In this document: piece after piece, positions 13,150 through 27,131 of the stretch
Position numbering within the stretch: position 1 is the first letter of the stretch
Layout of the letters: the number at the start of each line of letters is the position of its first letter
Assembly: GCF_001294455.1 (NCBI RefSeq)
Contig: NZ_LIKT01000009.1
Location: 124,001-188,000, forward strand
Reading direction: 5' to 3'
Length of the DNA: 64,000 nucleotides
Source: Phaeobacter sp. 11ANDIMAR09
Lineage (GTDB): Bacteria; Pseudomonadota; Alphaproteobacteria; Rhodobacterales; Rhodobacteraceae
Position numbers and translations under genes: made by a program
The notes under the pieces: generated by a model
Database searches by the model: none
Told to the model about the DNA's origin: nothing
What the model saw: only the letters and a program-made list of their open reading frames with translations

Positions 13150-14313
13150 TTAGGCGGCGGGCATACGCTGCTCAACAATGCCAGCCCACCAGCTGCATCC
13201 CGCAGGAATGGCCTCGTCGTTGAAATTGTACTCAGGGTGATGCACATCGGCGCTATCGCCATTGCCCACCAGAATATAGGCCCCGGGGCGCTCTTCGAGC
13301 AAATAGGCAAAATCCTCGCCCCCCATGACCAAAGGTGCTTCGTCGCACTTGCCCGAAATATCGCTGGCAACTTTGGCGGCGAATTCGGTCTGCTCGTCGT
13401 GGTTCACCATGACCGGATAGCCCCGGTTATAGGTCACATCCGCCGCACCGCCATAGGTCGCGGCCACACCGGCGCAGATCTCTTTGATCCGGGTCTCGGC
13501 CAGGTCGCGCATCTCTTTGGACATGGTGCGCACGGTGCCTTTGATTTGCACCCGCTGCGGGATCACATTGAAGGCCTTGGAGGAGGTCTCAAACGATGTC
13601 ACCGAGACCACGACGCGATCAATCGGGTCCGCATTGCGCGAGGCAATGGTCTGCAGCGCCAACACCGCCTGGGCGGTCATCACAGTGGTGTCGATGGTTT
13701 CATGTGGTTTGGCCGCGTGACCACCACGGCCTTCGAAGGTGATGTCAAAGGTATCGGTTGCCGCAAAGAAAGCGCCAGAGCGGATCGCAAAGCTGCCAAT
13801 AGGTTGGCCCGGCCAGTTGTGCATGCCGTAGACTTCCTGGATGTTCCAACGCTCCATCATGCCATCGTCGCACATTTCCTTGCCGCCGCCGCCGCCTTCT
13901 TCGGCAGGCTGGAAGATCACCACAACGGTGCCGTCAAAGTTGCGGGTCTCAGACAGGTATTTGGCCGCCCCCAGCAGCATGGCGGTATGGCCATCATGGC
14001 CGCAGGCATGCATGGCATTTGCGGTCTTGGAGGCATAGTCCAACCCGGTCTGTTCGTGGATCGGCAAGGCATCCATATCGGCACGCAGGCCAATCACCTT
14101 CCCTGCAGTGTCTCTCTTGCCCTTGATCACGCCGACAACACCCGTTCGGCCAATGCCGGTGACGATCTCGTCGCAGCCAAAAGCCTTTAGCTTTTCGGCC
14201 ACCAAGGCCGAGGTGCGGTGGGTTTCAAACAAGATTTCAGGGTTTTCGTGAATATCACGACGCCATTCGGTGATCTCTTTTTGCAATTCGGCAAAGCGGT
14301 TCTTGACCGGCAT
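13150..14313 (-). CDS. M20-family amidohydrolase, paralogue A (hippurate/N-acyl-amino-acid hydrolase type)
   Basis: This 387-residue metallopeptidase-like enzyme has the M20 dinuclear site: HACGHDGHT at 102-110 and QPAEEG at 135-140. Family members hydrolyse N-acyl or N-aroyl amino acids, including hippurate and plant-type indole-acetyl amino acids, in the cytoplasm. It is the last gene of a six-gene run that starts with the ABC transporter ATPase. It aligns residue for residue with the two preceding paralogues from the first codon to past residue 140. AAGGAGAG precedes the ATG. The acyl and amino-acid preferences cannot be predicted from the sequence. Confidence 0.9.
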   Translation of the reverse strand: MPVKNRFAELQKEITEWRRDIHENPEILFETHRTSALVAEKLKAFGCDEIVTGIGRTGVVGVIKGKRDTAGKVIGLRADMDALPIHEQTGLDYASKTANAMHACGHDGHTAMLLGAAKYLSETRNFDGTVVVIFQPAEEGGGGGKEMCDDGMMERWNIQEVYGMHNWPGQPIGSFAIRSGAFFAATDTFDITFEGRGGHAAKPHETIDTTVMTAQAVLALQTIASRNADPIDRVVVSVTSFETSSKAFNVIPQRVQIKGTVRTMSKEMRDLAETRIKEICAGVAATYGGAADVTYNRGYPVMVNHDEQTEFAAKVASDISGKCDEAPLVMGGEDFAYLLEERPGAYILVGNGDSADVHHPEYNFNDEAIPAGCSWWAGIVEQRMPAA

Positions 14314-14391
14314 GGAAACTCTCCTTGGTATAGATGTCCCGGTGATTTCCCCGGGTTGTATTGAATGATAATCTGTGGAGCCCGATCTGGA

Positions 14392-15561
14392 TCAGGCCAC
14401 GGGCATCCGCTGTTCGATCATTTCAGCAAACCAGCTGATCCCGGTTGGGATTGCCTCGTCGTTGAAGTCATATTCGGGATGGTGCAGCCCTGCCGAAGGC
14501 CCATTGCCCAATTGGATCATGGCTCCGGGGCGCTCTTGCAGCATGAAAGAGAAATCCTCTCCGCCCATGGAGACATCTGCCATCTCACAGGCCCCCGCAC
14601 CAGAGACGGTCTCGGCGGCCAGCTGCGCAAAATCCGCCGCCGTATCGTCATTGATCGTGACCGGGACACCCAGATGGAAGGACAGATCTACCGAACCGCC
14701 AAAAGTTTGGGCAATTCCTTCGGCAATGGCCTTGATCCGCTCTGGGATCAGGGCACGCGCCTCAGGCGAATGGGTCCGCACAGTGCCACGCACTTCAGCC
14801 CGATCCGGAATGACGTTGAAAGCCTTGGAGGAGGTCTCTGCCGAGGTCACCGACAGAACCGCCTGCTGAACTGGGTCGACATTGCGGGAGATCACGCTTT
14901 GCAGGGCACAGATGATATGGGACATCATCACCGTGGTATCGACGGTTTCCTGCGGTTTGGCCGCATGGCCGCCACGGCCCTGCAAGATCAGGGTGAACTC
15001 ATCCACCGAGGCCAGAATCGGACCGGGGCGCACGGCAAACTTGCCCAGTTCCAGCCCCGGGTAATTGTGAATGGCATAGACCTCATCAATGCCAAAACGT
15101 TCCATCAGCCCGTCCTTGCACATTGCCTCGGCGCCATTGCCGCCCTCCTCGGCGGGCTGAAAGATCACCACCGCGGTGCCATCAAAGTTCCGCGTCTCCG
15201 ACAGGTATTTGGCGGCGCCCAGCAGCATGGCCGTATGGCCGTCATGGCCACAGGCATGCATCGCCCCATCGGTTTTGGAGGCATGCGGCAGCCCGGTCTG
15301 TTCCTGCATCGGAAGCGCGTCCATATCGGCGCGCAGGCCAATGGCGCGCCCCTGCGTATCACTGCGACCCCGAATGATCCCAACCACACCGGTGCGGCCC
15401 AGGCCCGTCACCACTTCATCGCAGCCAAAGCTCGTCAGTTTTTCTGCTACCAGCGCCGAGGTGCGGTGGGTCTCGTAGAGGATTTCGGGGTTTTCGTGGA
15501 TATCGCGGCGCCAGCCGGCCACTTCTTCGTGCAGATCAGCAATTCGGTTTTTGACTGGCAT
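14392..15561 (-). CDS. M20-family amidohydrolase, paralogue B
   Basis: The 389-residue protein is the closest relative of paralogue A. Both begin MPVKNR, both have HACGHDGHT at 102-110, and both share the SETRNFDGT stretch after it. QPAEEG again lies at 135-140. The start is the ATG at MPVKNRIADL; a longer in-frame reading would overlap the next gene and matches nothing. In the substrate-facing middle region it departs from A (for example LPHASKT against LDYASKT, and FGIDEVYAIHNYPG against WNIQEVYGMHNWPG), which suggests a different substrate. It is separated by 78 bases from A. Confidence 0.9.
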   Translation of the reverse strand: MPVKNRIADLHEEVAGWRRDIHENPEILYETHRTSALVAEKLTSFGCDEVVTGLGRTGVVGIIRGRSDTQGRAIGLRADMDALPMQEQTGLPHASKTDGAMHACGHDGHTAMLLGAAKYLSETRNFDGTAVVIFQPAEEGGNGAEAMCKDGLMERFGIDEVYAIHNYPGLELGKFAVRPGPILASVDEFTLILQGRGGHAAKPQETVDTTVMMSHIICALQSVISRNVDPVQQAVLSVTSAETSSKAFNVIPDRAEVRGTVRTHSPEARALIPERIKAIAEGIAQTFGGSVDLSFHLGVPVTINDDTAADFAQLAAETVSGAGACEMADVSMGGEDFSFMLQERPGAMIQLGNGPSAGLHHPEYDFNDEAIPTGISWFAEMIEQRMPVA

Positions 15562-15583
15562 CGCGCATGTCCTTTTGTCAGAA

Positions 15584-16750
15584 TTATTTTGCGGGCATTC
15601 GTCGTTCGACGAGTTCGGAAAACCAGCTGCATCCCAGCGGAATCGCTTCATCATCAAAGACATAAGACGGGTGATGACACATAGGCGTGTCACCGTTCCC
15701 TAGGAAAATATAGGCGCCTGGGCGCTCTTCCAGCATGTAAGAGAAATCTTCAGATGGCATGATTGGCGGGGTGTCCTCATCCACCCGAGCGCCCACTGCA
15801 CGGGCGGCATCAACCGCATAGGCAGTTTCGGTCTCGGTATTGATAGTCACCGGATACCCGGGGGTCCAGATCACCTCGGCAGTGGCGCCAAAGGCCTCCG
15901 CCGTGCTGGTGACAACGCGCCGCACCCAGTCTTCAGCCTGGGCGCGGTACTCTGTGTCCAGCGTCCGAACAGTGCCTTCCAGTTTGGCGGTATGAGCAAT
16001 CACATTGGAGGCGGTACTGTCGGTTTCAAAGGTGCCAACTGTCAGCACCACCCGCTTGAGCGGATCCACATTGCGCGACACGATCGAATGCAGTGAGACC
16101 ACAATCTGCGAGGCCACCAGGGTGGTATCGATCGCATCATGCGGGGCCGCAGCATGGCCGCCCTTGCCGGTTACCTTGATCTCGAACTCATCCGAGGAGG
16201 CCAAAAGGGCACCTGGGCGAATGCCAAATTCACCCACAGGCATGCCCGGCGTATTGTGCAGCCCGTAGACTTCCTGAATACCCCAGCGCTCCATCAGGCC
16301 ATCATCGCACATGGCCTTGCCACCAGCCCCGCCCTCTTCGGCGGGTTGGAAGATCAGCACGGCCTTGCCATCAAAGTTCCGGGTCTCTGCCAGGTATTTT
16401 GCTGCCCCCAGCAGCATAGCCGTATGGCCATCATGGCCGCAGGCATGCATCACACCGGGCGTTTTCGAGGCATAGTCCACCCCAGACGCCTCATGAATGG
16501 GCAGCGCATCCATATCGGCACGCAGGCCAATGACCCGCCCCGAGGTATTGGTCTTGCCCTCGATCACCGCAACAACGCCGGTCTTAGCAATGCCGGGGGT
16601 CACATCCGTGACGCCAAAGCCCTTCAGCTGTTCCTGTACAAAGGCTGCGGTCTGATGCACCTCATACATGAGTTCAGGATTCTCATGCAGATGATGCCGC
16701 CAGGCGGTGATCTCTTTCTGCAGCTCAGCAAAACGATTTTTGATAGGCAA
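15584..16750 (-). CDS. M20-family amidohydrolase, paralogue C, with a TTG start
   Basis: This 388-residue protein is the third tandem copy: HACGHDGHT at 102-110 and QPAEEG at 135-140 again. No ATG begins the frame. The TTG at 16748-16750 is chosen because it has AGAGGAG eight bases upstream and gives MPIKNRFAELQKEI, which lines up exactly with the MPVKNR starts of A and B. A GTG two codons earlier lies too close to the ribosome site. It is more divergent than A and B are from each other (for example WRHHLHENPELMYEVHQTAA). Only 22 bases separate it from B. Confidence 0.9.
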   Translation of the reverse strand: MPIKNRFAELQKEITAWRHHLHENPELMYEVHQTAAFVQEQLKGFGVTDVTPGIAKTGVVAVIEGKTNTSGRVIGLRADMDALPIHEASGVDYASKTPGVMHACGHDGHTAMLLGAAKYLAETRNFDGKAVLIFQPAEEGGAGGKAMCDDGLMERWGIQEVYGLHNTPGMPVGEFGIRPGALLASSDEFEIKVTGKGGHAAAPHDAIDTTLVASQIVVSLHSIVSRNVDPLKRVVLTVGTFETDSTASNVIAHTAKLEGTVRTLDTEYRAQAEDWVRRVVTSTAEAFGATAEVIWTPGYPVTINTETETAYAVDAARAVGARVDEDTPPIMPSEDFSYMLEERPGAYIFLGNGDTPMCHHPSYVFDDEAIPLGCSWFSELVERRMPAK

Positions 16751-16774
16751 AGGCACAACTCCTCTCAAGTGAGA

Positions 16775-16792
16775 TAATTGTTACGAGAATTA
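16775..16792. promoter_or_regulatory. Candidate MarR operator TAATT-N8-AATTA
   Basis: An AT-rich dyad lies in the 53-base gap between marR and M20 paralogue C, upstream of the M20 start. MarR proteins often bind such AT-rich inverted repeats near their own genes. Short arms make this tentative. Confidence 0.3.
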
Positions 16793-16803
16793 AAAAGCCT
16801 TGT

Positions 16804-17274
16804 CTACGCCTCTTGCTGATCGGGGCCCTGGGCCGCGAGAAAGGTGACAAGGTTTTCTTGCAAGATTGATATGTCAGCCGAGCCCAACCCGCCTGTGACC
16901 TCTGCACGCAAAGTGGCCAGGCGCTTTTTGGAGGCAAGTGTATAGGTCAGCCCTGACTGCGTCAGCGTCAGCCGAACGGTGCGCCGGTCCCCGTCGCAGC
17001 GCTCGCGCAGGACCAGGCCCCGATCCTCCAGCTTGTCCACATAGCGCCCCAAGGTGGCGTCATTGATCGCCAGAATCCCACCATAGACGCTTTGCACCAG
17101 CCCCGGCTTGCGATGGATCATGCCCAAAACGCTCATGTGTCCGGCGGAGAGCCCTGCGTCCTTGCCGATGGTCTCGACATGCTGCGCGATCATCCGGCCA
17201 GCGATCTGCAGCAATACAGCAAAATCGATGTCCTCGTAGATCCCTTTGGGAAGCTCACTCTCAAACTTTGACAT
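16804..17274 (-). CDS. MarR-family transcriptional regulator
   Basis: The 156-residue protein has a winged helix-turn-helix of the MarR type. The recognition region is INDATLGRYVDKLEDRGLVLRE (quoted as INDATLGRYVDKLEDRG) and the wing is RCDGDRRTVRLTLT. An ATG two codons after a GTG is preferred because it has AAAGG at good spacing. MarR proteins are usually repressors released by small aromatic or acidic ligands. It is embedded in the same-strand run between the ArgE-like gene and the three M20 paralogues, so it most likely senses a substrate or product of this locus. Confidence 0.88.
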   Translation of the reverse strand: MSKFESELPKGIYEDIDFAVLLQIAGRMIAQHVETIGKDAGLSAGHMSVLGMIHRKPGLVQSVYGGILAINDATLGRYVDKLEDRGLVLRERCDGDRRTVRLTLTQSGLTYTLASKKRLATLRAEVTGGLGSADISILQENLVTFLAAQGPDQQEA

Positions 17275-17318
17275 GGTCACCTTTCACTAAACGGCAGAGC
17301 GGAACAATCGACCTCCGG

Positions 17319-18491
17319 TTACGTAAAATCCTCCAACCGCGCAACGAGCTGTTTCATAAAGTCATGACCTGCGGAGAATTGCGCCACCGTGATGAACTCA
17401 TTGGGCTGATGAGCCTGAGCAATATCGCCGGGCCCGCAGATCACAGCGGAATAGCCTGCTGCCTGAAACTGACCGGCCTCAGTGCCATAGCTGACCACAT
17501 GGGTTGCGTTGTCTCCGGTGAGGCTGCGCACCAGCGCTTCGGACTGCCCCTCTTCTTCGGGCACCAGGGCCGGCACGTCAAAGGCCTTGCGGATCTCGAT
17601 ACGCGCCTCGGGGTGGATGGCCTGCATCTCCGCTTCGACCCTTTGCACTTCAGCGCGATAGGCCGCCTCCCAATCCGAGGCCTGCTCACCAGGAACCACC
17701 CGAAAATCCATCATGAATTCGCAGTCCTTTGCGGTGATGTTATGGGCGGTCCCGCCCGAGATCATTCCAACATGGCAGGTGGTAAAGGGTGGGTTGAACA
17801 GGGATTGCATCGCCCCCGGCTTGCGACCCATGTTTTCGGCATTACGATGGTTGGCCCAGTCGATCAGCCGGGCCCCCTGCATAATGGCACTGACGCCAGT
17901 ATGCATAAGCGAGCTGTGCACCTCAAAGCCAACCACATGCGTCCGGTAGCCGATACCGCCCTTATGGCCGGTCACCGTCTGCATCATCGAAGGTTCCCCC
18001 ACAATCACCGCTGATCCTTTGGGCAGATGCTTTTGCATCTCTTCGATCATGGGAGGCGCCCCGGTGCAGCCGATCTCTTCGTCAAAACTAAGCGCCAATT
18101 GCAGCGGTCGTTGCACGCCCCTGTGATGAGCATCCACCAGGGCCCAGATCGCCAGGGCGTCAAAGCCCTTCATGTCGCAGGTGCCACGGCCAAAATACTT
18201 ACCGTCGCGTTCAACCACCGTAAACGGGTCGCTGTCCCAGGGTTGGCCATCCACCGGCACCACATCTGTGTGACCCGACAGGACCACCGCGCCCTCTATC
18301 TCAGGGCCGACATGGGCGAACACAGCCGCCTTATGCGGCTGGTCCGGATCCACCCAGCGGTGCGAAGCTATGCCCTGTTCCGACAGGTAGTCCTGCACCC
18401 AGTCGACCAGAGGCAAATTGCTGTCCCGGCTTACAGTCGGGAATGCCACCAGCTGCGTCATGATTTCGAGCGGCGAAAGCACCTTCGCCAT
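17319..18491 (-). CDS. ArgE/DapE-type M20 deacylase (acetylornithine deacetylase-like)
   Basis: This 390-residue M20A enzyme has the metal ligands in order: His74 and Asp76 in SGHTDVVPVDGQPW, Asp106 in RGTCDMKG, and the Glu138/139 pair in FDEEIGCTG. It resembles acetylornithine deacetylase, which releases ornithine from its N-acetyl form. Most alphaproteobacteria use the ArgJ cycle and do not need ArgE for biosynthesis, so its position behind a peptide-type transporter argues for catabolic deacylation of an imported N-acyl amino acid. The ATG lies four bases after the transporter ATPase stop (TGATCGCATG); a GTG five codons earlier would overlap that gene. Confidence 0.85.
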   Translation of the reverse strand: MAKVLSPLEIMTQLVAFPTVSRDSNLPLVDWVQDYLSEQGIASHRWVDPDQPHKAAVFAHVGPEIEGAVVLSGHTDVVPVDGQPWDSDPFTVVERDGKYFGRGTCDMKGFDALAIWALVDAHHRGVQRPLQLALSFDEEIGCTGAPPMIEEMQKHLPKGSAVIVGEPSMMQTVTGHKGGIGYRTHVVGFEVHSSLMHTGVSAIMQGARLIDWANHRNAENMGRKPGAMQSLFNPPFTTCHVGMISGGTAHNITAKDCEFMMDFRVVPGEQASDWEAAYRAEVQRVEAEMQAIHPEARIEIRKAFDVPALVPEEEGQSEALVRSLTGDNATHVVSYGTEAGQFQAAGYSAVICGPGDIAQAHQPNEFITVAQFSAGHDFMKQLVARLEDFT

Positions 18492-18495
18492 GCGA

Positions 18496-20316
18496 TCAGT
18501 ATCCACTGTCGGTGGTCAGCACAAAATGACCCGGCTCCACCTCTAGATACTTTGAGGGCTCGGGCTGATAGTCCAAGCCATGAATAGGCGATGGAATCGG
18601 TTTGAAGTTCAGATCTTTTTCGCTCTTGCGGCGACGTGGATCAGCGATCGGCACTGCTTTCATCAAGGCCTGGGTATAGGCATGCTGCGGGTTTTCAAAG
18701 ACGCGGGCACGCGGGCCCAATTCCACGATTCGCCCCAGATACATCACCCCCACCTGGTGACTGACTCGCTCGACCACGGCCATATCATGGCTGATGAAGA
18801 GAAAAGACAATCCAAGGTCTGCCTGTAATTCCATCATCAAGTTCAAAACTTGAGCTTGTACCGAAACGTCCAGTGCCGACACCGCCTCGTCAGCGACGAT
18901 CAATTTAGGGTTCAGCGCCAAGGCACGGGCAATTGCGATTCTTTGACGCTGCCCACCAGACATTTCATGCGGATAACGCCGCATAAAGCTGCGCGGCAGT
19001 TGCACTCGATCAAACAGATTCGCCACGCGGTCCTGCAGCTCAGAGCCTGACGCCAACCCATAGTTGCGCAGCGGCTCAGCAACCTGGTCCAAGAGTTGCA
19101 TCTGCGGGTTCAGCGAGGCAAAAGGATCCTGAAAAATCATCTGCATATCCAGGCGCGCCTTGTGCAACTCGCTCTGGTTCAAGCCGATGACGTCACGTCC
19201 CTCGAACTCGACCTTGCCTGAAAGAGGCTCAACCAAACGCAGAATCGAGCGACCTGCCGTTGATTTCCCGCATCCCGATTCGCCCACTAGCGACAATGTC
19301 TGCCCCTTAAAAACCTTGAAGGACACGTCCTCGACCGCATGCACATTGGCCACGGTGCGGCGCAGCAAGCCGCCTTTGACCGGGAAACGGGTGGTCAGGT
19401 TTTCAACGTTTAGCAGCACTTCTTCGGTGCCGATAATCGGTTCGATCTTCTGGTCCTCAACACCCATCAGTTTCATCGGCTCTGGGTAGGCTTTGCCCTG
19501 CATCTCGCCCAGCTTTGGCACAGCCGCAAGCAGCGCTTTGGTATAGTCATGCTGAGGATTTTCAAAGATTTCTTCTACCGTGCCTTCTTCGACTTTATTG
19601 CCCCGGAACATCACCACAACCCGGTCCGCCATCTGGGCCACAACCGCCATGTCATGGGTGATGAACATCACCGCAGTGCCGGTTTCACGCTTTAGCCGGT
19701 CCATCAGGGCCAGGATTTCCGCCTGAATGGTCACATCCAGCGCGGTTGTGGGCTCATCCGCGATCAACAGGCGCGGTTCGCAGGCCATGGCCATGGCGAT
19801 CACCACCCGCTGGCGCATGCCGCCAGAGAGTTCATGGGGATATTGCGCCATACGGCGCTCGGGTTCGGGAATACGCACCTCACGCAGCAATTCAACCGCA
19901 CGTTCTTCGGCTTGCGCCTTGTTCATATCCTTATGGACCCGCAGGCCTTCGGTCAGCTGACGGCCAACGGTGAACACCGGGTTCAGAGCCGTCATAGGCT
20001 CCTGAAAGATCATGCCGATTTCATTGCCACGAATGTCTTTCATCACCTCGCCAGGGGCTTTGGAAAGATCCATCTCGCCGCCGTCGCGCCGGTCAAACAT
20101 CAGTTCGCCAGCAGCAATCTCGCCGCCGCCAAACTCCACCAGGCGCATAAGAGAAAGGGAAGAAACAGATTTGCCAGAGCCGGATTCACCGACGACACAG
20201 ACGGTCTCACCAGGGTGGACATCAAAAGAGACATTTTCGACGCCGACGACCGGCCCATCTTTGGTTTGAAACTCTACACGCAAGTTACTGATGGATGCGA
20301 TAGCATTGTCCAGCAT
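18496..20316 (-). CDS. Fused double ABC ATPase of a peptide/opine-type transporter (DppD-DppF fusion)
   Basis: The 606-residue protein holds two complete ABC domains in one chain. The first has Walker A GESGSGKS (43-50), signature LSGGMRQRV (164-172) and [12 protein letters not shown]. The second has Walker A GESGCGKS (345-352), then MSGGQRQRI and [10 protein letters not shown]. Each is followed by the oligopeptide-transporter C-terminal extension (the [15 protein letters not shown] and [15 protein letters not shown] blocks). It energises import by the permeases encoded across the divergent region. The ATG has AGGGGAG upstream; the longer in-frame reading is not supported. It is the first gene of the run ArgE-like, MarR, M20 C, B, A. 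Confidence 0.93.
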
Positions 20317-20406
20317 GGCGGCTCCCCTTAGTTCTTCTTTTTGGCCTCGCACAGCATGCAAGCGCCGCTTTTGCAGCGGATAGCACAATTCGCCTCAACA
20401 ATACTC

Positions 20407-20421
20407 ATGCAAATATTGCAT
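20407..20421. promoter_or_regulatory. Perfect dyad ATGCAA-ATA-TTGCAT
   Basis: Six-base arms with a three-base spacer sit in the middle of the divergent region, about 90 bases from the ATPase start and 237 from the binding-protein start. It is a good operator candidate for a regulator of both arms of the locus. Confidence 0.45.
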
Positions 20422-20423
20422 AG

Positions 20424-20454
20424 GCAAATCCAAAATTCGGATTTGCATTTTTTT
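20424..20454 (+). terminator. Terminator-like hairpin in the leader of the binding-protein gene
   Basis: GCAAATCC-AAAATTC-GGATTTGC is an 8-bp perfect stem followed by ATTTTTTT. It could end transcripts entering from upstream or act as an attenuator if the promoter lies before it. The stem is only half GC, so strength is uncertain. Confidence 0.45.
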
Positions 20455-20657
20455 GGAAACTGGTTTTCGATACGGCCAGTATCTGCACATGGGGGCCGGT
20501 CGTATAGCGACCAAAGATGTTGAAAAATTTCGATCTTTCAATTTGTTCCACGCCAACTTAGGCAGAACGACATCGTACCCGCAGCTTTGCGGCAACAAGC
20601 CGGAGTATAAATCTTCGGCACAAAAAGACACGTAATGTGTTCGACAAGGAGAGTGTA

Positions 20658-22358
20658 ATGAAACTCAAAACCCTCTTGATGGGTGCCATCGCCACGGCCG
20701 CCATCGCTCCGGCAGCTTTTGCCGAGCGCGGCTCGGATGGCCAGGTCAGTATCATCTATTGGCAAGCGCCTTCGATCCTGAACCCCTTCCTGTCCGGCGG
20801 CACCAAGGACGTTGAATCCGCGTCGCTGGTGATCGAACCTCTGGCCCGCTACAACGAAGTTGGTGAAATGGTGCCTTTCCTGGCAGCCGAAATTCCAACA
20901 GTTGAAAACGGCGGCGTCAGCGAAGACCTGACCTCCATCACCTGGAAAATCGCCTCTGGCCTCAAATGGTCCGATGGCTCAGCCTTCACCTCGGCTGATG
21001 TGAAATTCACCGCAGATTACTGCATGGACCCTGAAGGCGGCTGCGCGCAGGTCACCAAATTTGAAGGCGTGACCTCGGTCGAAGCGCTTGACGACCTGAC
21101 TGTCAAAGTCACCTTCGACAAGCCAACCCCTTTCCCCTACGGTCCCTTTGTTGGCGGCGAGAGCCCCATCATCCAGGCGGCTCAGTTTGCGGATTGCATG
21201 GGCGCCAAGGCTCCTGAGTGCACCGAGGCCAACTTTGGTCCCATCGGCACCGGCCCATTTGTTGTGGATGAGTTCAAGCCCAACGACGTGATCACCATGT
21301 CGGCGAACCCCAACTACCGTGACCCGGCTAAGCCTGCCTTTGCCAAGGTCCTGTTCAAAGGGGGCGGCGACGCAACGGCTGCTGGCCGTGCGGTTATGGA
21401 AACCGGCGAGTTCGATTACGCCTGGAACCTGCAGTTGGCTCCTGAAGTTGTGGCCCAGATGGAATCCGCTGGCAAAGGTACGCCTGTCGCAGGTTTCGGC
21501 CCACTGGTTGAGCGGATCATGCTGAACAACACCAACCCTGACCCGGCGCTTGGCCCAGATGAGCGTTCGGTGATCCGTCCTCACCCATTCTTGGGCGACC
21601 CTGCGGTTTACAAAGCGATGTCGCTGGCGATTGACCGTCCTCTGCTGGTCGAAATCGGCTATGGCAAAGCAGGTAAAGTCACCTGTAACTGGATCCCAGC
21701 GCCTGCCGCTGTGAACTCCGACACCTTCACCTGCGACAAGCAGGACATCGCAGCCGCAAACGCGATGCTGGACGAAGCGGGCTACAAAGACACCAATGGT
21801 GACGGCGTCCGTGAAACTCCATCGGGTGTTCCGATGAAGATCCTGTACCAGACCTCGACCAATGCCGTGCGTCAGGATTTTCAGGCTCTGATCAAACAGT
21901 GGTGGAGCGAAATTGGTATCGAAACCGAGCTGCGTAACCTCAGCGGTTCCGTGTTCTTTGGTGGCGACCCCGGCTCGCCTGACACCTTCCAGAAGTTCTA
22001 TGCCGACGTTGAAATGTATGCCAATACCTTCAACGGCACCGACCCTCAGTCCTACCTGGCCAACGGCCTGTGCGACAAGGCGCCTACGCCTGCGTCCCAG
22101 TGGCAGGGTGAGAACATCTCTCGCTTCTGTAACGAAGAGTTCGACAAGCTGCACGCTGAGCTGACAACAACAGCCGGTGCCGCAGCCCGTGCCGAAATCT
22201 CCAAGCGTCTCAATGACATCATCGTTGAAAACGGCGGCATGATCCCACTGGTTCACCGTGGTCGTCTGTCGGCGCATGCCAACTCTTTGGGTGGCGTTGT
22301 GCTGAACGTCTGGGACAGCGAGCTGTGGAACGCAGCTGACTGGCACCGCATCAAGTAA
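20658..22358 (+). CDS. Periplasmic substrate-binding protein of peptide/nickel/opine-type ABC transporter (SBP_bac_5)
   Basis: This 566-residue family 5 solute-binding protein has a cleavable signal peptide (residues 1-22, ending PAAFA before ERGSDG). The YWQAPSILNPFLS and LVIEPLARYN blocks follow, and the TGPFVVDEFKPND and INEIGY-like regions are typical of DppA/OppA proteins. The ATG is preceded by AAGGAGAG, and an in-frame start seven codons earlier is disregarded. It delivers substrate to the two permeases downstream. At 566 residues it is slightly longer than DppA (about 535). Cargo in this family ranges from dipeptides to opines and N-acyl conjugates; the four deacylases opposite point to the last. 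Confidence 0.92.
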   Translation: MKLKTLLMGAIATAAIAPAAFAERGSDGQVSIIYWQAPSILNPFLSGGTKDVESASLVIEPLARYNEVGEMVPFLAAEIPTVENGGVSEDLTSITWKIASGLKWSDGSAFTSADVKFTADYCMDPEGGCAQVTKFEGVTSVEALDDLTVKVTFDKPTPFPYGPFVGGESPIIQAAQFADCMGAKAPECTEANFGPIGTGPFVVDEFKPNDVITMSANPNYRDPAKPAFAKVLFKGGGDATAAGRAVMETGEFDYAWNLQLAPEVVAQMESAGKGTPVAGFGPLVERIMLNNTNPDPALGPDERSVIRPHPFLGDPAVYKAMSLAIDRPLLVEIGYGKAGKVTCNWIPAPAAVNSDTFTCDKQDIAAANAMLDEAGYKDTNGDGVRETPSGVPMKILYQTSTNAVRQDFQALIKQWWSEIGIETELRNLSGSVFFGGDPGSPDTFQKFYADVEMYANTFNGTDPQSYLANGLCDKAPTPASQWQGENISRFCNEEFDKLHAELTTTAGAAARAEISKRLNDIIVENGGMIPLVHRGRLSAHANSLGGVVLNVWDSELWNAADWHRIK

Positions 22359-22375
22359 GCGGCTTTAGCCCAAAC

Positions 22376-22402
22376 GAGGCCCCGGTGTTTCACCGGGGCC
22401 TC
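22376..22402 (+). terminator. Strong hairpin between binding-protein and permease genes
   Basis: GAGGCCCCGGTG-TTT-CACCGGGGCCTC is a 12-bp perfect stem just after the binding-protein stop, with only a short TT after it. Without a long T-run it is more likely an mRNA-stabilising or partial-termination hairpin, which would raise binding-protein output over permease output. Confidence 0.65.
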
Positions 22403-22518
22403 TTGCCATCAGTGCCCCATTCCGTTCTATCGCGGGTACATTGGCCACGCGACGCAGCCTCTGAGGTGCGATCGCCTGTCCAGCTCAACAATAACAAATT
22501 GCAAAAGGCGCACGCTCC

Positions 22519-23526
22519 ATGCTGACCTTTACAATCAGGCGACTGGTCCTGTCGGTTCCGACACTGCTGTTTATCAGTCTCGTGATTTTCCTGCTGCTCG
22601 AACTCGCCCCTGGCGACCCGATGGCACAGGTTCCCCTCACAGTTCCCCCTGAAGTCAAAGAAAAAATGCGCGAGGCCCTGGGCCTTGGCCAACCCGCCCC
22701 CATTCGGTTCTGGAAATGGCTGGTGCAGTTCTTCTGGATTGAACCCCAGGTTCTGATCGACCACTATTTTGGCACCACCTTCTCGCAGGGTGACCTGCGG
22801 GTGATCTCCTGGCAGACCCGTTCGCCAGTGATGGATATCGTCATCCAGCGGATGCCCCAGACCCTGTGGGTTGTTGGCACCGCCTACGTGGTTGCCATCT
22901 TTATCGCCCTGCCAATTGGTATCTATTCGGCCTATCGCCAGTACAGCTGGTTCGACCAGCTTGGCACCTTTGTGTCGATGGTTGGCTTTTCCGTGCCACC
23001 GTTCTTTTCCGGTGTTTTGGTCATCGTGATCTTTTCGGTGCAGCTTGGCTGGTTCCCCTCGATCTATGACACCACCCATGTGGTCGATAGCTGGGACAGT
23101 TTTGTTTACCAGATGAAGCAGATGATCATGCCGGTCATGGTTCTGGCCTTGCAGATCACCGCACAGCTCAGCCGTTTCATGCGCGCCTCGATGCTGGATA
23201 ACCTCAATCAGGACTATGTGCGTACCGCACGGGCCAAGGGCCTCAGCGAGTATGTTGTGGTCATGGTGCATGTGCTGCGCAACTCGATGATTCCTGTGGT
23301 CACCGTGATTGCCCTGGGCATCCCGTCGATCTTTGGCGGCGCCATCATCACTGAACAGGTGTTCAAGGTGAATGGCATCGGCCAGTTGCTGATTGGCGCC
23401 ATCCAGGCCAATGACCTGCCCATGGTGCAGACGCTGACCTTTATCTTTGCCATCCTCATCGTGCTGTTCAATCTGATCGCCGATGTTCTCTACGGCATCC
23501 TAGACCCGAGGATCCGCTATGACTGA
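22519..23526 (+). CDS. ABC transporter permease, DppB type
   Basis: The 335-residue inner-membrane protein begins with the family opening MLTFTIRRLVLSVPTLLFIS, a first membrane helix. It then has a periplasmic domain and a five-helix core with the EAA-like loop YVRTARAKGLSEYVV near residue 235, which contacts the ATPase. It ends RIRYD like other DppB proteins. Its last 8 bases overlap the next gene (ATGACTGA). Confidence 0.93.
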   Translation: MLTFTIRRLVLSVPTLLFISLVIFLLLELAPGDPMAQVPLTVPPEVKEKMREALGLGQPAPIRFWKWLVQFFWIEPQVLIDHYFGTTFSQGDLRVISWQTRSPVMDIVIQRMPQTLWVVGTAYVVAIFIALPIGIYSAYRQYSWFDQLGTFVSMVGFSVPPFFSGVLVIVIFSVQLGWFPSIYDTTHVVDSWDSFVYQMKQMIMPVMVLALQITAQLSRFMRASMLDNLNQDYVRTARAKGLSEYVVVMVHVLRNSMIPVVTVIALGIPSIFGGAIITEQVFKVNGIGQLLIGAIQANDLPMVQTLTFIFAILIVLFNLIADVLYGILDPRIRYD

Positions 23527-24430
23527 GCTTAGCAATCCCATCCCCAGCAAGCCACCGCGCAGCCAGTGGCTGGACGTCTGGGACCAGTTCAAATCGCACC
23601 GCGGAGCCCTGATGGGCGGGATTCTCTTCCTGCTGATTGTTGCCTCCGTTTACCTTGGGCCATTGTTCTGGGACATCGAAGCAACCCATATCGACATCCG
23701 CTCGCGTAATCAGGGGCCTAGCTGGGCGCATCCCTTTGGCACCGATCAGCTGGGGCGCGATATGATGGCCCGGATGATGGCAGGCGGCTCCACCTCGGTC
23801 TCGGTGGGTCTTACTGCGATGGCGCTGGCGCTGTTCCTGGGTTCCTTCATCGGCGTGGTCGCCGGGTTCTTCAAACGGCTGGACGGGCCGTTGATGCGCC
23901 TGACCGACCTGTTCCTGGCGCTGCCCCTGCTGCCGCTGCTCCTGGTGATGATGTTGTTGTTCCGCGAACCGCTGAACGCGGCCTTCGGACCGGAACAGGG
24001 CATCTTTATCCTGATCGTTTGCGCCATTGGGGTGACCTCCTGGATGCCCACTGCCCGGATCGTGCGCGGCGATGTTCTGGCGATCAAGGAACGTGAGTTT
24101 GTTCTGGCGGCCCGCTCCATCGGGACCTCGAACAAGGGGCTGATCACCCGGCATATCCTGCCCAACGTGCTGTCACCCATCATGGTCTCGGCCACCCTTG
24201 GTATTGCCACGGCGATCATCACCGAAAGCTCGCTGTCCTTCCTTGGCCTCGGCTTCCCACCGGATTTCCCAACCTGGGGACGGTTGCTGTTTGATGCCAC
24301 CGACTATCTGCAGCAGCATCCAGAGCGGGTATTCTGGCCCGGCATGGCGATCTCCTTGACCGTGCTGAGCGTGAACTACCTTGGTGATGGTCTGCGGGAT
24401 GCCCTGGATCCACGGATTCGCGGCCGCTAA
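23519..24430 (+). CDS. ABC transporter permease, DppC type
   Basis: This 303-residue inner-membrane permease has the DppC plan: an N-terminal helix, the HPFGTDQLGRD motif near residue 77, the EAA loop FVLAARSIGTSNKGLITRH, and the ending ALDPRIRGR. It pairs with the DppB-type protein to form the channel. An 8-base overlap couples its translation to that gene. A strong terminator follows. Confidence 0.93.
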   Translation: MTELSNPIPSKPPRSQWLDVWDQFKSHRGALMGGILFLLIVASVYLGPLFWDIEATHIDIRSRNQGPSWAHPFGTDQLGRDMMARMMAGGSTSVSVGLTAMALALFLGSFIGVVAGFFKRLDGPLMRLTDLFLALPLLPLLLVMMLLFREPLNAAFGPEQGIFILIVCAIGVTSWMPTARIVRGDVLAIKEREFVLAARSIGTSNKGLITRHILPNVLSPIMVSATLGIATAIITESSLSFLGLGFPPDFPTWGRLLFDATDYLQQHPERVFWPGMAISLTVLSVNYLGDGLRDALDPRIRGR

Positions 24431-24488: not shown

Positions 24489-24515
24489 CGGCCGTCCCCT
24501 GGGGCGGCCGTTTTT
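24489..24515 (+). terminator. Intrinsic terminator of the binding-protein/permease operon
   Basis: CGGCCG-T-CCC-CT-GGG-G-CGGCCG followed by TTTTT, about 60 bases after the DppC-type stop. Confidence 0.85.
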
Positions 24516-24696
24516 GTTTCACAGCTCCTGTGAAAATTGCGAACAGGATCCCACCAGGACCGTATCAAGCGGGAAGCCGTTCCACCCCAAACCAATCCAA
24601 ACACGTCACCGCCCCTTGCCTGACAATGGATTTGCTCTCATTTCGGGAAATAATTCCACTTCGCAATTCCACGTCACAGTGAAACGGGTACAGGCA

Positions 24697-25782
24697 ATGT
24701 TTGAGACACTCGGCTTTGAAGAGACCAGCCCACGACTGGCCTCGCTCTATTTTTCCCTCGCACTGGGCCTGGGCTTTGGCGTGCTGGCTCAGCTCACCCG
24801 GTTTTGTTTTCGTCGCGCTGTGATCGGTGAAGACCGACGTCAAGCCGCGGGCATTTGGGCACTGGCGCTTGTGGTGTCGGTTCTGGGCACTCAGGCTGCC
24901 GTGATCCAGGGCTGGATCAGCTTTGATGCCCACCGCCTGCTGGTCTCGGATCTGCCGCTGCTGGCCATTGCGCTAGGTGGCGTGATGTTTGGCATTGGTA
25001 TGGTGCTGACCCGGGGCTGCATTTCCCGCCTCACCGTGCTCAGCGGCACCGGAAATCTGCGCGCCCTGCTCTGCCTGGTGGTTTTTGCCATCACCGCCCA
25101 TGCCACGCTCAAAGGCGTGTTGGCACCCCTGCGCAGCGCATTGGGCAGCTACACTGTCCAGCTGGGGGACTATGCAACACTGGCCGCCCTGCCCGGCGGT
25201 GCGCCCCTGTGGAGCGCCCTCATCGCCCTGCCCGCCCTTTGGGTGGCGCTGCGCTCAAAGAACGCTGCATTGGCCCTGCTTGGCGGCGCCATGATCGGGG
25301 CGCTGGTGCCGCTGGCCTGGGTGACCACCGGATTTGTGCTCTTTGATGAATTCGACCCCATCGCCATGGAGAGCCTGTCCTTTACTGCGCCAATGTCCGA
25401 AGGGCTGTTCTATGCGATCGCCTCCAGCGCCGTCCCTGCGGGCTTTGGACCCGGATTGATTGGCGGTGTCCTGGTCGGCGCGCTGCTCACCGCCCTGCTG
25501 CGGGGGCAATTCCACTGGCAGAGTTTTGAAAACCCAGGCCAGACCGGCCGCTACATTCTGGGCGCCAGCCTGATGGGCTTTGGTGGGGTTCTTGCGGGTG
25601 GCTGCACCCTCGGCGCCGGTCTAGCGGGGGTCTCCACCCTGGGGGTGGCGGCACCTCTGGCGCTGGGTGCAATTGCCCTGGGTGGAATCCTGGCGCACCG
25701 GGTGCTGAGAGACAGGCCTAATGCAGCTTCTTTTTCACCCGCTGGATCGCCAGCCACACCAGCGCCACAACCGGCAGAGTGA
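24697..25782 (+). CDS. YeeE/YedE-family sulfur (thiosulfate-type) transporter
   Basis: This 361-residue polytopic membrane protein has the two repeated halves of YeeE/YedE (TsuA) proteins. The conserved cysteine motifs are RFCFRRAVIG, LTRGCISRL and GGCTLGAGLAG; in the characterised thiosulfate transporter the equivalent cysteines line the pore. It probably imports thiosulfate or another reduced sulfur species. The start is set at MFETLGFEETSP, where homologous sequence begins; a longer in-frame reading begins inside the preceding terminator. The last about 22 residues are a Pro/Ala-rich tail encoded opposite the end of the DUF3422 gene. Confidence 0.85.
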   Translation: MFETLGFEETSPRLASLYFSLALGLGFGVLAQLTRFCFRRAVIGEDRRQAAGIWALALVVSVLGTQAAVIQGWISFDAHRLLVSDLPLLAIALGGVMFGIGMVLTRGCISRLTVLSGTGNLRALLCLVVFAITAHATLKGVLAPLRSALGSYTVQLGDYATLAALPGGAPLWSALIALPALWVALRSKNAALALLGGAMIGALVPLAWVTTGFVLFDEFDPIAMESLSFTAPMSEGLFYAIASSAVPAGFGPGLIGGVLVGALLTALLRGQFHWQSFENPGQTGRYILGASLMGFGGVLAGGCTLGAGLAGVSTLGVAAPLALGAIALGGILAHRVLRDRPNAASFSPAGSPATPAPQPAE

Positions 25783-26998
25783 TCAGGGCCGTCATCATCC
25801 CCTTGCTTTGGCCCAAGGCCTGCGCGAGGGGATAGAGCAGGTAAGAGGCCAGCGAGACGGCGTAGTAGCTGATCGCCACCACCGAGAGCCCCTCAACGGT
25901 GTGCTGCAGCCGCAGCGCCTGATCCGCGCGCCGGTCCATACTGGCCAAAAGCGCCTGATTCTGCGCGCTGCGCTCCACATCAACCCGGGTTCTGAGCAGC
26001 TCGCCTCCCCGACGCGCCCGATCCGCCAGAGTGCCGATACGTTTCTCGGTGGATTTCACCGTGCGCATGGCGGGCTCATAGCGGCGCAGCATGAACTCCG
26101 CAAAGGTTTGAAACCCACCATGGCGGGCCTCGCGCAGCAGGCTGATGCGTTGATTGACCAGTGCCTCATAGGCGCCTGTGGCGCCAAAGCGAAAGGCCGA
26201 GCGCGCCGCCATAGCCTCCAACTCAGCCGAGACGGTGAGAAGCTGCGTCAGGGTCTGTTCCGCCGGAATGGTGTCTGAGGTCATTTCGGCCATCATCTTG
26301 CTCAGATGCGTGTCCAATGTGCCAATGTCGCGGCTGAGATCCCGCGCCCGCGAAAATCCCAGCATCGACATGGCACGATAGGTTTCGATCTCGCAAAGTC
26401 GCTGGACCAATCGGCCGATGCGTTGCGAGCCGGTAGCGGCATTGGCAAAGAGGGCAAAGCGCATATGTCCCGCTGGATCAATGCGGAAATCCCCCGCCAC
26501 CACAGCGCTGTCATCCAACACATCGGCCACGGCCAGGCTTTCCGGGACAAACCAATCCTTGAGTGCAGCCTTGATCCGCTTTGGCTCCGGGCGCGGCAGA
26601 ATACGGATCATCAAAGAGGTCACCCGCTGCCCCGGCGCGGCTTCCAGCCACTCGGCTGGGAAGATGTCAAAATCCGACGGGTCAAAGGCCCGTTTTGCGA
26701 CTCCATCCCCATAGAGCGTATAGCTGACAAATTCGGTGTGTTGTTCCCATTTCAGGGTGTAGCGCCCCAGTTGCGCCGAATGATGGGTGGCACCGGGTTG
26801 CGGATGCGCTGCGCCGTGGCGGTCCAGCAGCGCCACAAGATGCGCCAGGTCCAGGCTGCGGTCGCGGTGCACTGCTTCCCTGGGCTGTTTCACCGCCAGA
26901 TAGATCACCGTGCTAGGGCTTTGCATGGCGGGAAAGGGCCGGGCATGCAGTTCATTGGCAAGAGAGTAGCGCAGGGGATGATCTGGGATGGGGGGCAT
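25718..26998 (-). CDS. DUF3422 family membrane-anchored protein
   Basis: The 426-residue protein begins MPPIPDHPLRYSLANELHARPF, the hallmark of DUF3422. The body is largely helical and ends with two membrane helices (about residues 365-390 and 395-420) before a basic KKKLH tail. The function of the family is unknown. Most of the chain should face the cytoplasm. Its last 65 coding bases overlap the tail of the YeeE-type gene on the other strand. Confidence 0.85.
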   Translation of the reverse strand: MPPIPDHPLRYSLANELHARPFPAMQSPSTVIYLAVKQPREAVHRDRSLDLAHLVALLDRHGAAHPQPGATHHSAQLGRYTLKWEQHTEFVSYTLYGDGVAKRAFDPSDFDIFPAEWLEAAPGQRVTSLMIRILPRPEPKRIKAALKDWFVPESLAVADVLDDSAVVAGDFRIDPAGHMRFALFANAATGSQRIGRLVQRLCEIETYRAMSMLGFSRARDLSRDIGTLDTHLSKMMAEMTSDTIPAEQTLTQLLTVSAELEAMAARSAFRFGATGAYEALVNQRISLLREARHGGFQTFAEFMLRRYEPAMRTVKSTEKRIGTLADRARRGGELLRTRVDVERSAQNQALLASMDRRADQALRLQHTVEGLSVVAISYYAVSLASYLLYPLAQALGQSKGMMTALITLPVVALVWLAIQRVKKKLH

Positions 26999-27131
26999 GA
27001 CGTCGGGTCTCCAATAGTGACGCCACCATAGGACCCATGTTTCAATCTGTACAGAATTCTTTTATTTCAACATGTTACAGGGATACAATGGTATACAAAT
27101 CCACGCCAGCCAGCTCGAGCATGCTGGGATT

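What the first reader, a model, noticed from the sequence alone, without database searches (positions are those of the whole stretch)
13150..24430. A complete uptake-and-hydrolysis locus for N-acylated or conjugated amino acids
Seen: a fused DppDF ATPase, an ArgE-like deacylase, a MarR regulator and three tandem M20 amidohydrolases form one run on the reverse strand. The binding protein and two permeases diverge from it. Known: M20 enzymes of these groups cleave N-acyl, N-aroyl (hippurate) and indole-acetyl amino acids, and family 5 binding proteins carry peptides, opines and conjugates. Inference: one importer feeds four deacylases of differing acyl specificity, with MarR sensing a released acid. 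I know no described system with this exact set. Auxin-amino-acid conjugates from algae are one speculative substrate.
Basis: partly seen in the sequence, partly recalled or inferred. Interest (0 to 1): 0.72.

Follow-up and report, generated by a model that had tools for sequence, protein, structure and literature searches.

The report
Roseobacter importer with clustered amino-acid deacylases
A gene cluster shared by many related marine bacteria joins one nutrient importer to enzymes that probably cut acyl groups off amino acids; its true substrate is unknown but could be tested directly in a laboratory strain.

Summary
The nine genes are there as described, in a Pseudophaeobacter-like roseobacter. 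The unit is conserved. Of 74 named loci with at least 8 kb held upstream of the binding-protein gene, 70 carry M20D genes, 67 the ArgE-like gene, none lacks both. In the window's own genome 1 of 11 family-5 binding proteins has an M20 gene within 10 kb. The three M20D genes are old paralogue lineages with intact metal sites. MarR is confined to the genus, with a candidate operator in the divergent promoter region. In 26 of 80 loci an FAD oxidoreductase, closest in the PDB to L-amino acid deaminase, lies between M20D and ArgE. By gene order the Ruegeria pomeroyi counterpart is SPO2814-2816; its permease mutants show small fitness losses beside Vibrio in a diatom culture. Most likely function: import and intracellular deacylation of N-acyl-type amino acids. 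The substrate is unproven; auxin conjugates are speculation. Importer-plus-amidohydrolase loci are a known kind (naa, yxe), so this is a new variant.

The parts
13150..14313 (-). M20D amidohydrolase, lineage a (387 aa), the lineage found in 67 of 81 loci compared
14392..15561 (-). M20D amidohydrolase, lineage b (389 aa from the conserved MPVKNR start; the ORF runs to 15693)
15584..16768 (-). M20D amidohydrolase, lineage c (394 aa)
16804..17280 (-). MarR-type regulator, found only in the genus among the loci compared
17319..18506 (-). ArgE-like (PRK07522) deacylase, 395 aa
   Evidence: the genome has ArgJ
18496..20316 (-). fused DppD-DppF ATPase, nearest NCBIfam model GsiA (775 bits, cut-off 1077); the ORF runs to 20388
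20469..20483 (.). inverted repeat GATAC-N5-GTATC, candidate MarR operator in the divergent promoter region
20655..22358 (+). family 5 substrate-binding protein (567 aa; the ORF begins at 20637)
22519..23526 (+). permease B (OppB/DppB type)
23519..24430 (+). permease C (OppC/DppC type)

Best explanation
The locus is a catabolic unit for N-blocked amino acids: N-acyl, N-aroyl or short blocked peptides. The binding protein and permeases B and C, driven by the fused ATPase, import the conjugate. Cytoplasmic M20D hydrolases, of lineages with probably differing preference for the acyl or amino-acid side, and an ArgE-like hydrolase then cut the amide and release an amino acid and a carboxylic acid. 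In about a third of the named relatives' loci an FAD enzyme like L-amino acid deaminase would oxidise the freed amino acid. In this genus a MarR protein probably represses both divergent operons at a palindrome between them. Shown: gene content, conservation, paralogue history, intact metal sites. Inferred: all substrates, cell compartment, direction of flux and regulation.
For: Of 74 loci with enough flank, 70 have M20D, 67 ArgE, 63 both, none neither, within the roughly 10 kb held upstream. In the family sample outside the genus, 15 of 16 genomes with the binding protein have M20D or ArgE in the locus; the sixteenth is cut by its contig end. Control: 1 of 11 family-5 binding proteins in the window's genome lies within 10 kb of an M20 gene (coordinates). 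Positions C104, H106, E138, E139, H165 and H358 are invariant in 122 of 122 locus M20Ds. The five solved relatives of M20a include YxeP, IAA-amino acid hydrolase ILL2, N-alpha-acyl-glutamine aminoacylase and an aminobenzoyl-glutamate utilization protein; the fifth, 4ewt, is named only as an M20 peptidase. The FAD gene, where found (26 of 80), is always on the same strand between M20D and ArgE; its best PDB match is L-amino acid deaminase. ArgJ is present, so ArgE is not needed for arginine synthesis. Permease mutants of the R. pomeroyi counterpart, so identified by gene order, lose fitness in one co-culture.
Against: No substrate is known. Fitness effects are small (-0.12, -0.14 log2) and significant in one of three treatments. 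M20D scores highest against carboxypeptidase CpsA in NCBIfam, though below its cut-off (364, 344 and 357 against 500). The binding protein lacks a conserved Asp at the DppA D436 position, but this says little: the column shifts (N 23, D 4, S 3, A 1, P 1 of 32; T 32 of 32), E. coli GsiB and NikA lack it too, and 7 of 10 other binders of the same genome do. The structure model is middling (pLDDT 76.5) and its matches are tied among nickel, peptide, opine and other binders. Four of 74 loci lack M20D and 7 lack ArgE. Binding-protein copies stand without these enzymes on five Sulfitobacter plasmids (60-61% identity, also without permeases) and in homologues of 37-54% (L057, L059, L144, L145, L146, L160, L161).
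Confidence: 0.55

Rival explanations
1. Ordinary peptide scavenging: the importer takes up free di- or oligopeptides and the M20 proteins act as carboxypeptidases or dipeptidases.
For: Family 5 importers of this type carry peptides (recalled); the nearest NCBIfam transporter models are Opp4 for binding protein and permeases and GsiA for the ATPase, and the highest-scoring equivalog for M20D is carboxypeptidase CpsA, all below cut-off.
Against: Four of the five nearest solved M20D relatives are named, here or, for acyl or aroyl amino acid substrates; the ArgE-like partner is above the cut-off of a deacylase family; the Asp shared by DppA, OppA, MppA and DdpA is not conserved, which is weak evidence.
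Confidence: 0.28
2. Salvage of sulfur amino acid conjugates such as N-acetylcysteine or mercapturates, with the neighbouring YeeE/TsuA-like transporter also supplying sulfur.
For: The best-scoring solved relative of M20a is YxeP (257 bits), described as an N-acetylcysteine deacetylase beside an ABC transporter; a YeeE-like gene follows permease C on the same strand within 1.5 kb in 27 of 74 loci.
Against: No such YeeE gene in 47 of 74 loci; no lyase or monooxygenase of the yxe type among the genes identified round the window's locus; homology to YxeP does not carry the substrate over.
Confidence: 0.09
3. An opine or chitin-oligosaccharide importer that happens to lie beside unrelated hydrolases.
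For: The best PDB sequence matches of the binding protein include a chitin-oligosaccharide binding protein (1zty); opine binders MoaA and AccA are among the fold matches.
Against: Matches are weak (about 102 bits for 573 aa) and tied over many ligand classes; M20D or ArgE accompanies the binding protein in 74 of 74 loci with enough flank, which chance neighbours would not.
Confidence: 0.05

Closest known systems
naa system of Ruegeria pomeroyi for N-acetyltaurine (SPO0657-0664), seen in passages of PMC4334477
   Same: An ABC importer with one binding protein, two permeases and two ATPases next to an amidohydrolase for the imported N-acyl compound, in a related bacterium.
   Different: One amidohydrolase (naaS), LysR regulator, separate ATPases; no ArgE or M20D tandem is named. 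Sequence kinship was not tested.
yxe (scm) operon of Bacillus subtilis, S-(2-succino)cysteine breakdown (passages of PMC9706529)
   Same: ABC transporter YxeMNO beside YxeP, the best-scoring solved relative of M20a, which deacetylates N-acetylcysteine.
   Different: No genes of the YxeK, YxeL or 2SL kind were identified round the window's locus; one deacetylase only.
gsi and ddp loci of E. coli
   Same: Hydrolase gene next to a family 5 importer (iaaA-gsiABCD with ATPase GsiA; ddpX-ddpABCDF). GsiA is the nearest NCBIfam model for the window's fused ATPase.
   Different: Hydrolases are of other kinds (isoaspartyl dipeptidase, D-Ala-D-Ala dipeptidase); GsiA's cut-off is not reached.
N-alpha-acyl-glutamine aminoacylase and IAA-amino acid hydrolase ILL2 (PDB 6slf, 1xmb)
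   Same: M20D relatives; the metal-binding motifs align with those of the window's enzymes, except that the 6slf alignment ends before the C-terminal His.
   Different: Genomic setting not examined here; substrates of the window's enzymes are unknown.

Membership tests
TIGR01891 amidohydrolase subfamily (M20D) | score above the curated cut-off of 153.75 bits | tested here: met
   346, 338 and 341 bits for the three tandem genes
TIGR01891 amidohydrolase subfamily (M20D) | metal ligands and catalytic Glu | tested here: met
   invariant at C104, H106, E138, E139, H165, H358 in 122 of 122 locus sequences; the roles of these residues are recalled, the motifs align with 1ysj and 1xmb
acetylornithine deacetylase ArgE (TIGR01892, PRK07522) | score above the curated cut-offs | tested here: met
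   384 against 297.7 and 495 against 412 bits
acetylornithine deacetylase ArgE (TIGR01892, PRK07522) | works in arginine biosynthesis | tested here: inconclusive
   ArgJ is in the genome, so the step is otherwise supplied; activity not tested
dipeptide/oligopeptide family 5 ABC importer | SBP_bac_5, two BPD_transp_1 permeases, ATPases with oligo_HPY | tested here: met
dipeptide/oligopeptide family 5 ABC importer | Asp that anchors the free amine of peptides (DppA D436; role recalled) | tested here: inconclusive
   not conserved in 32 sequences, but the column shifts between two alignments, and E. coli GsiB and NikA and 7 of 10 other binders of this genome lack it too
glutathione ATPase GsiA (NF007613) | score above the equivalog cut-off of 1077 bits | tested here: not met
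   775 bits
DoeB2, N-acetyl-diaminobutanoate deacetylase (NF038260) | score above 550 bits | tested here: not met
   330, 301 and 335 bits
carboxypeptidase CpsA (NF040868) | score above 500 bits | tested here: not met
   364, 344 and 357 bits
yxe (scm) operon | YxeK monooxygenase or 2SL lyase and YxeL acetyltransferase in the cluster | tested here: not met
   none among the ORFs from 5097 to 30277 that I gave to Pfam; no search with the yxe proteins themselves was made
naa N-acetyltaurine system | orthologues of naaA and naaS | not tested
   naa sequences were not at hand; only gene names were read

The most novel reading that the evidence does not exclude
A roseobacter-wide scavenging system for algal N-acyl and N-aroyl amino acid conjugates, such as indole-acetyl or phenylacetyl amino acids, in which separate M20D lineages handle different acyl groups; hydrolysis would also free hormones or other active acids in the phycosphere.
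Probability: 0.15. Interest if true: 0.75.

Novelty: new variant of a known kind. Interest (0 to 1): 0.5.

Why it matters
R. pomeroyi has about 126 organic-carbon influx transporters, of which 18 have verified substrates (abstract of PMC10130141); a search of that text finds no locus tag beginning SPO28. The transporter here is widespread in roseobacters, its permease mutants, identified by gene order, show a small fitness loss in one diatom co-culture, and its neighbouring enzymes narrow the guess to N-blocked amino acids. That makes the assignment of an orphan ocean-nutrient importer a short experiment.

Tried and rejected
Chitin-oligosaccharide import: among the best PDB sequence matches of the binding protein, too weak, and the fold comparison is tied over many ligand classes. 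Arginine biosynthesis for ArgE: ArgJ present. Ectoine (DoeB2) and CpsA identities: below cut-offs. Recent dosage duplication of the M20 genes: rejected, since lineages a (67 loci), b (12) and c (27) are each at most one per locus and span genera; it is a quick tree, supports round a and b (90-94) fall short of its 95 mark, and 16 of 122 locus M20Ds fall in none of the three. MarR as a core part: rejected. My query called d26306 (26306-27031, +) is antisense to a real DUF3422 gene (25718-26998, -), so its columns mark DUF3422. The promoter scan of 20300-20700 found no sigma-70 consensus site. The palindrome is missing in one of 12 distinct genus genomes that does have MarR (L040). A first count gave the FAD gene in 21 of 80 loci (clusters of ORFs); tblastn over 250 bits gave 26 of 80, the figure used. 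The lack of the DppA-type Asp was first taken as support for a blocked amine; on recount it is too common among other binders. Literature: searches found no papers; one search listed 15 of 22; one search listed 10, of which I searched passages in three; I also searched passages in two more; apart from PMC10041152 (used), none mentions the set in the passages seen, though accession numbers of amidohydrolases could not be matched to genes. One search found three papers by locus tag (used), none; one search listed 12 of 202, of which two were searched by term; one search listed 8 of 12, one searched by term; one search listed 8 of 41, plant papers by title and abstract start, not opened.
Full report
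Observation. Pfam and NCBIfam give, from 20316 leftwards on the minus strand, a fused DppD-DppF ATPase, an ArgE-like (PRK07522) deacylase, a MarR regulator and three M20D amidohydrolases; and on the plus strand a family 5 binding protein (from 20655) and two permeases. Gene spacing on the minus strand (11-base overlap, then gaps of 38, 35, 22 and 78 bases) fits one transcript. The long ORF of the middle M20 gene should start at 15561.

Organism. The window is contig C9, 124001-188000, of a 4.7 Mb genome. The nearest named record is Pseudophaeobacter sp. EL27 (binding protein 97% identical), whose contig has the same length as that of G005, a genome of the window's genus.

Conservation. Searching 60 relatives with the binding protein gave matches in 29, the window's genome included: 11 of 11 others of the genus, 16 of 24 others of the family, and 1 of 24 from the rest of the class. 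In the genus, 10 of 11 loci show all nine genes (one with M20c split into two ORFs), and the eleventh is cut by its contig end after seven. In the 16 other family genomes, M20D is in the locus in 12 and ArgE in 14; 15 have at least one, and the last contig begins 387 bases before the binding protein. I left out of that count a second, 54% copy without permeases in one of these genomes (L057) and the class homologue (L059, 39%), neither of which has a deacylase. It was mapped. Six of the 80 were dropped for having less than 8 kb upstream; of the 74 left, 70 have M20D, 67 ArgE, 63 both, none neither, 63 a divergent fused ATPase, 10 separate D and F genes upstream on the binding protein's strand, 73 each permease, and 2 MarR. 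Farther off, a Rhizobium lusitanum plasmid keeps M20D beside the binding protein and permeases (56% M20D, 59% binding protein), but Neorhizobium, Roseomonas and Microvirga homologues (37-51%) show no deacylase, and five Sulfitobacter plasmids carry a 60-61% copy with neither permeases nor deacylases. As a control within the window's genome, 1 of 11 family-5 binding proteins has an M20 gene within 10 kb (coordinates; one of the eleven is on a 17.6 kb contig).

The M20D genes. Window and 80 loci hold 0 to 4 M20D genes: 8 loci with none, 38 with one, 24 with two, 8 with three, 3 with four; four of the eight empty loci are truncated or hold a partial copy at a contig end. A quick tree of 125 sequences puts the three window genes in three lineages that span genera: a in 67 loci, b in 12, c in 27, never twice in one locus. 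Sixteen of the 122 locus proteins fall in none of the three. Three other M20 proteins of the same genome lie far outside. Six metal and catalytic positions are invariant in all 122 locus proteins, whereas 17 positions differ by lineage, among them 144 and 146 near E138/E139, 331 and 332, and 357 next to H358. Divergence near the active site suggests, but does not show, different substrates.

Added enzyme. In 26 of 80 loci an FAD oxidoreductase (Pfam DAO) lies between M20D and ArgE, always on their strand. Its best solved match is L-amino acid deaminase (165 bits). The window's own genome has a 42% relative elsewhere. This is the neighbour one would expect if the hydrolases free L-amino acids.

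Binding protein. Sequence and fold place it among family 5 binders without a clear ligand. Aligned with six E. coli binders, it lacks the Asp that DppA, OppA, MppA and DdpA share at DppA position 436; the residue is N in 23, D in 4, S in 3, A in 1 and P in 1 of 32, or T in 32 of 32 in a second alignment. E. coli GsiB and NikA lack it as well, as do 7 of 10 other binders of the same genome, so the point hardly bears on the substrate. That D436 and R383 matter in DppA is taken from the title of a PDB entry with both mutated (8z1z); the amine-anchoring role is recalled.

Regulation. The divergent region carries GATAC-N5-GTATC at 20469-20483. It is exact in 13 of 14 genus rows (11 of 12 distinct genomes, two rows being second copies of the same genomes) and in 0 of 68 rows from outside the genus, where no MarR gene was found. 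The genomes are closely related and one with MarR lacks the repeat, so this is a candidate operator, not proof.

Experimental trace in print. R. pomeroyi SPO2814 is listed as a peptide/opine/nickel binding protein and SPO2815 and SPO2816 as permeases (passages of PMC8319176 and PMC10041152), SPO2819 and SPO2820 as pntB and pntA. The window has the same order: binding protein, B, C, a YeeE-like gene, DUF3422, pntB, pntA; Ruegeria loci L067 and L121 show it as far as pntB. The identity of the R. pomeroyi genes is thus inferred from order, not from a sequence comparison. Mutants in the two permeases lost 0.12 and 0.14 log2 fitness with Vibrio in the diatom phycosphere, significantly in one of three mixed cultures (section 6 of PMC10041152 read); the authors propose that such losses mark resources that the competitors do not use. 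In the transporter study that verified thirteen substrates, a term search finds no SPO28 tag (PMC10130141).

Verdict. The best reading is an importer coupled to deacylases for N-blocked amino acids. The kind is known: naa for N-acetyltaurine in R. pomeroyi (passages of PMC4334477) and yxe with YxeP in B. subtilis (passages of PMC9706529). What is new is the specific, widely conserved combination with several old M20D lineages, ArgE and, in a third of the named loci, a probable amino-acid-oxidising enzyme. I found no paper that describes it in the searches listed under Tried and rejected.

Noticed in passing
24514-25782 (+): YeeE/TsuA-like sulfur transporter gene 83 bases after permease C; a homologue follows permease C on the same strand within 1.5 kb in 27 of 74 named loci.
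   Followed up: partly
25718-26998 (-): DUF3422 protein (516 bits), a neighbour of unknown function between the importer and pntBA.
   Followed up: no
L140:7497-11884, L142:10016-14768, L144:6001-10713: Binding-protein paralogues without permeases beside them on roseobacter plasmids, next to RidA, cytochrome c and a flavin amine oxidase; to cytochrome c, FAD oxidoreductase and M55 peptidase genes; or to N-formylglutamate amidohydrolase and an FAD oxidoreductase. Orphan binders may feed a chromosomal permease. The three other roseobacter plasmid copies opened lack such neighbours, apart from a Rid hydrolase beside one.
   Followed up: partly
L075, L076, L079, L082, L092, L108, L112, L115, L117, L128: The divergent fused ATPase is replaced by separate DppD and DppF genes on the binding protein's strand in these 10 of 74 named loci, a swap within one conserved importer.
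   Followed up: no
   Followed up: no
L133: A MAG contig titled Granulosicoccaceae carries the locus (binding protein 73%): binning error or transfer.
   Followed up: no
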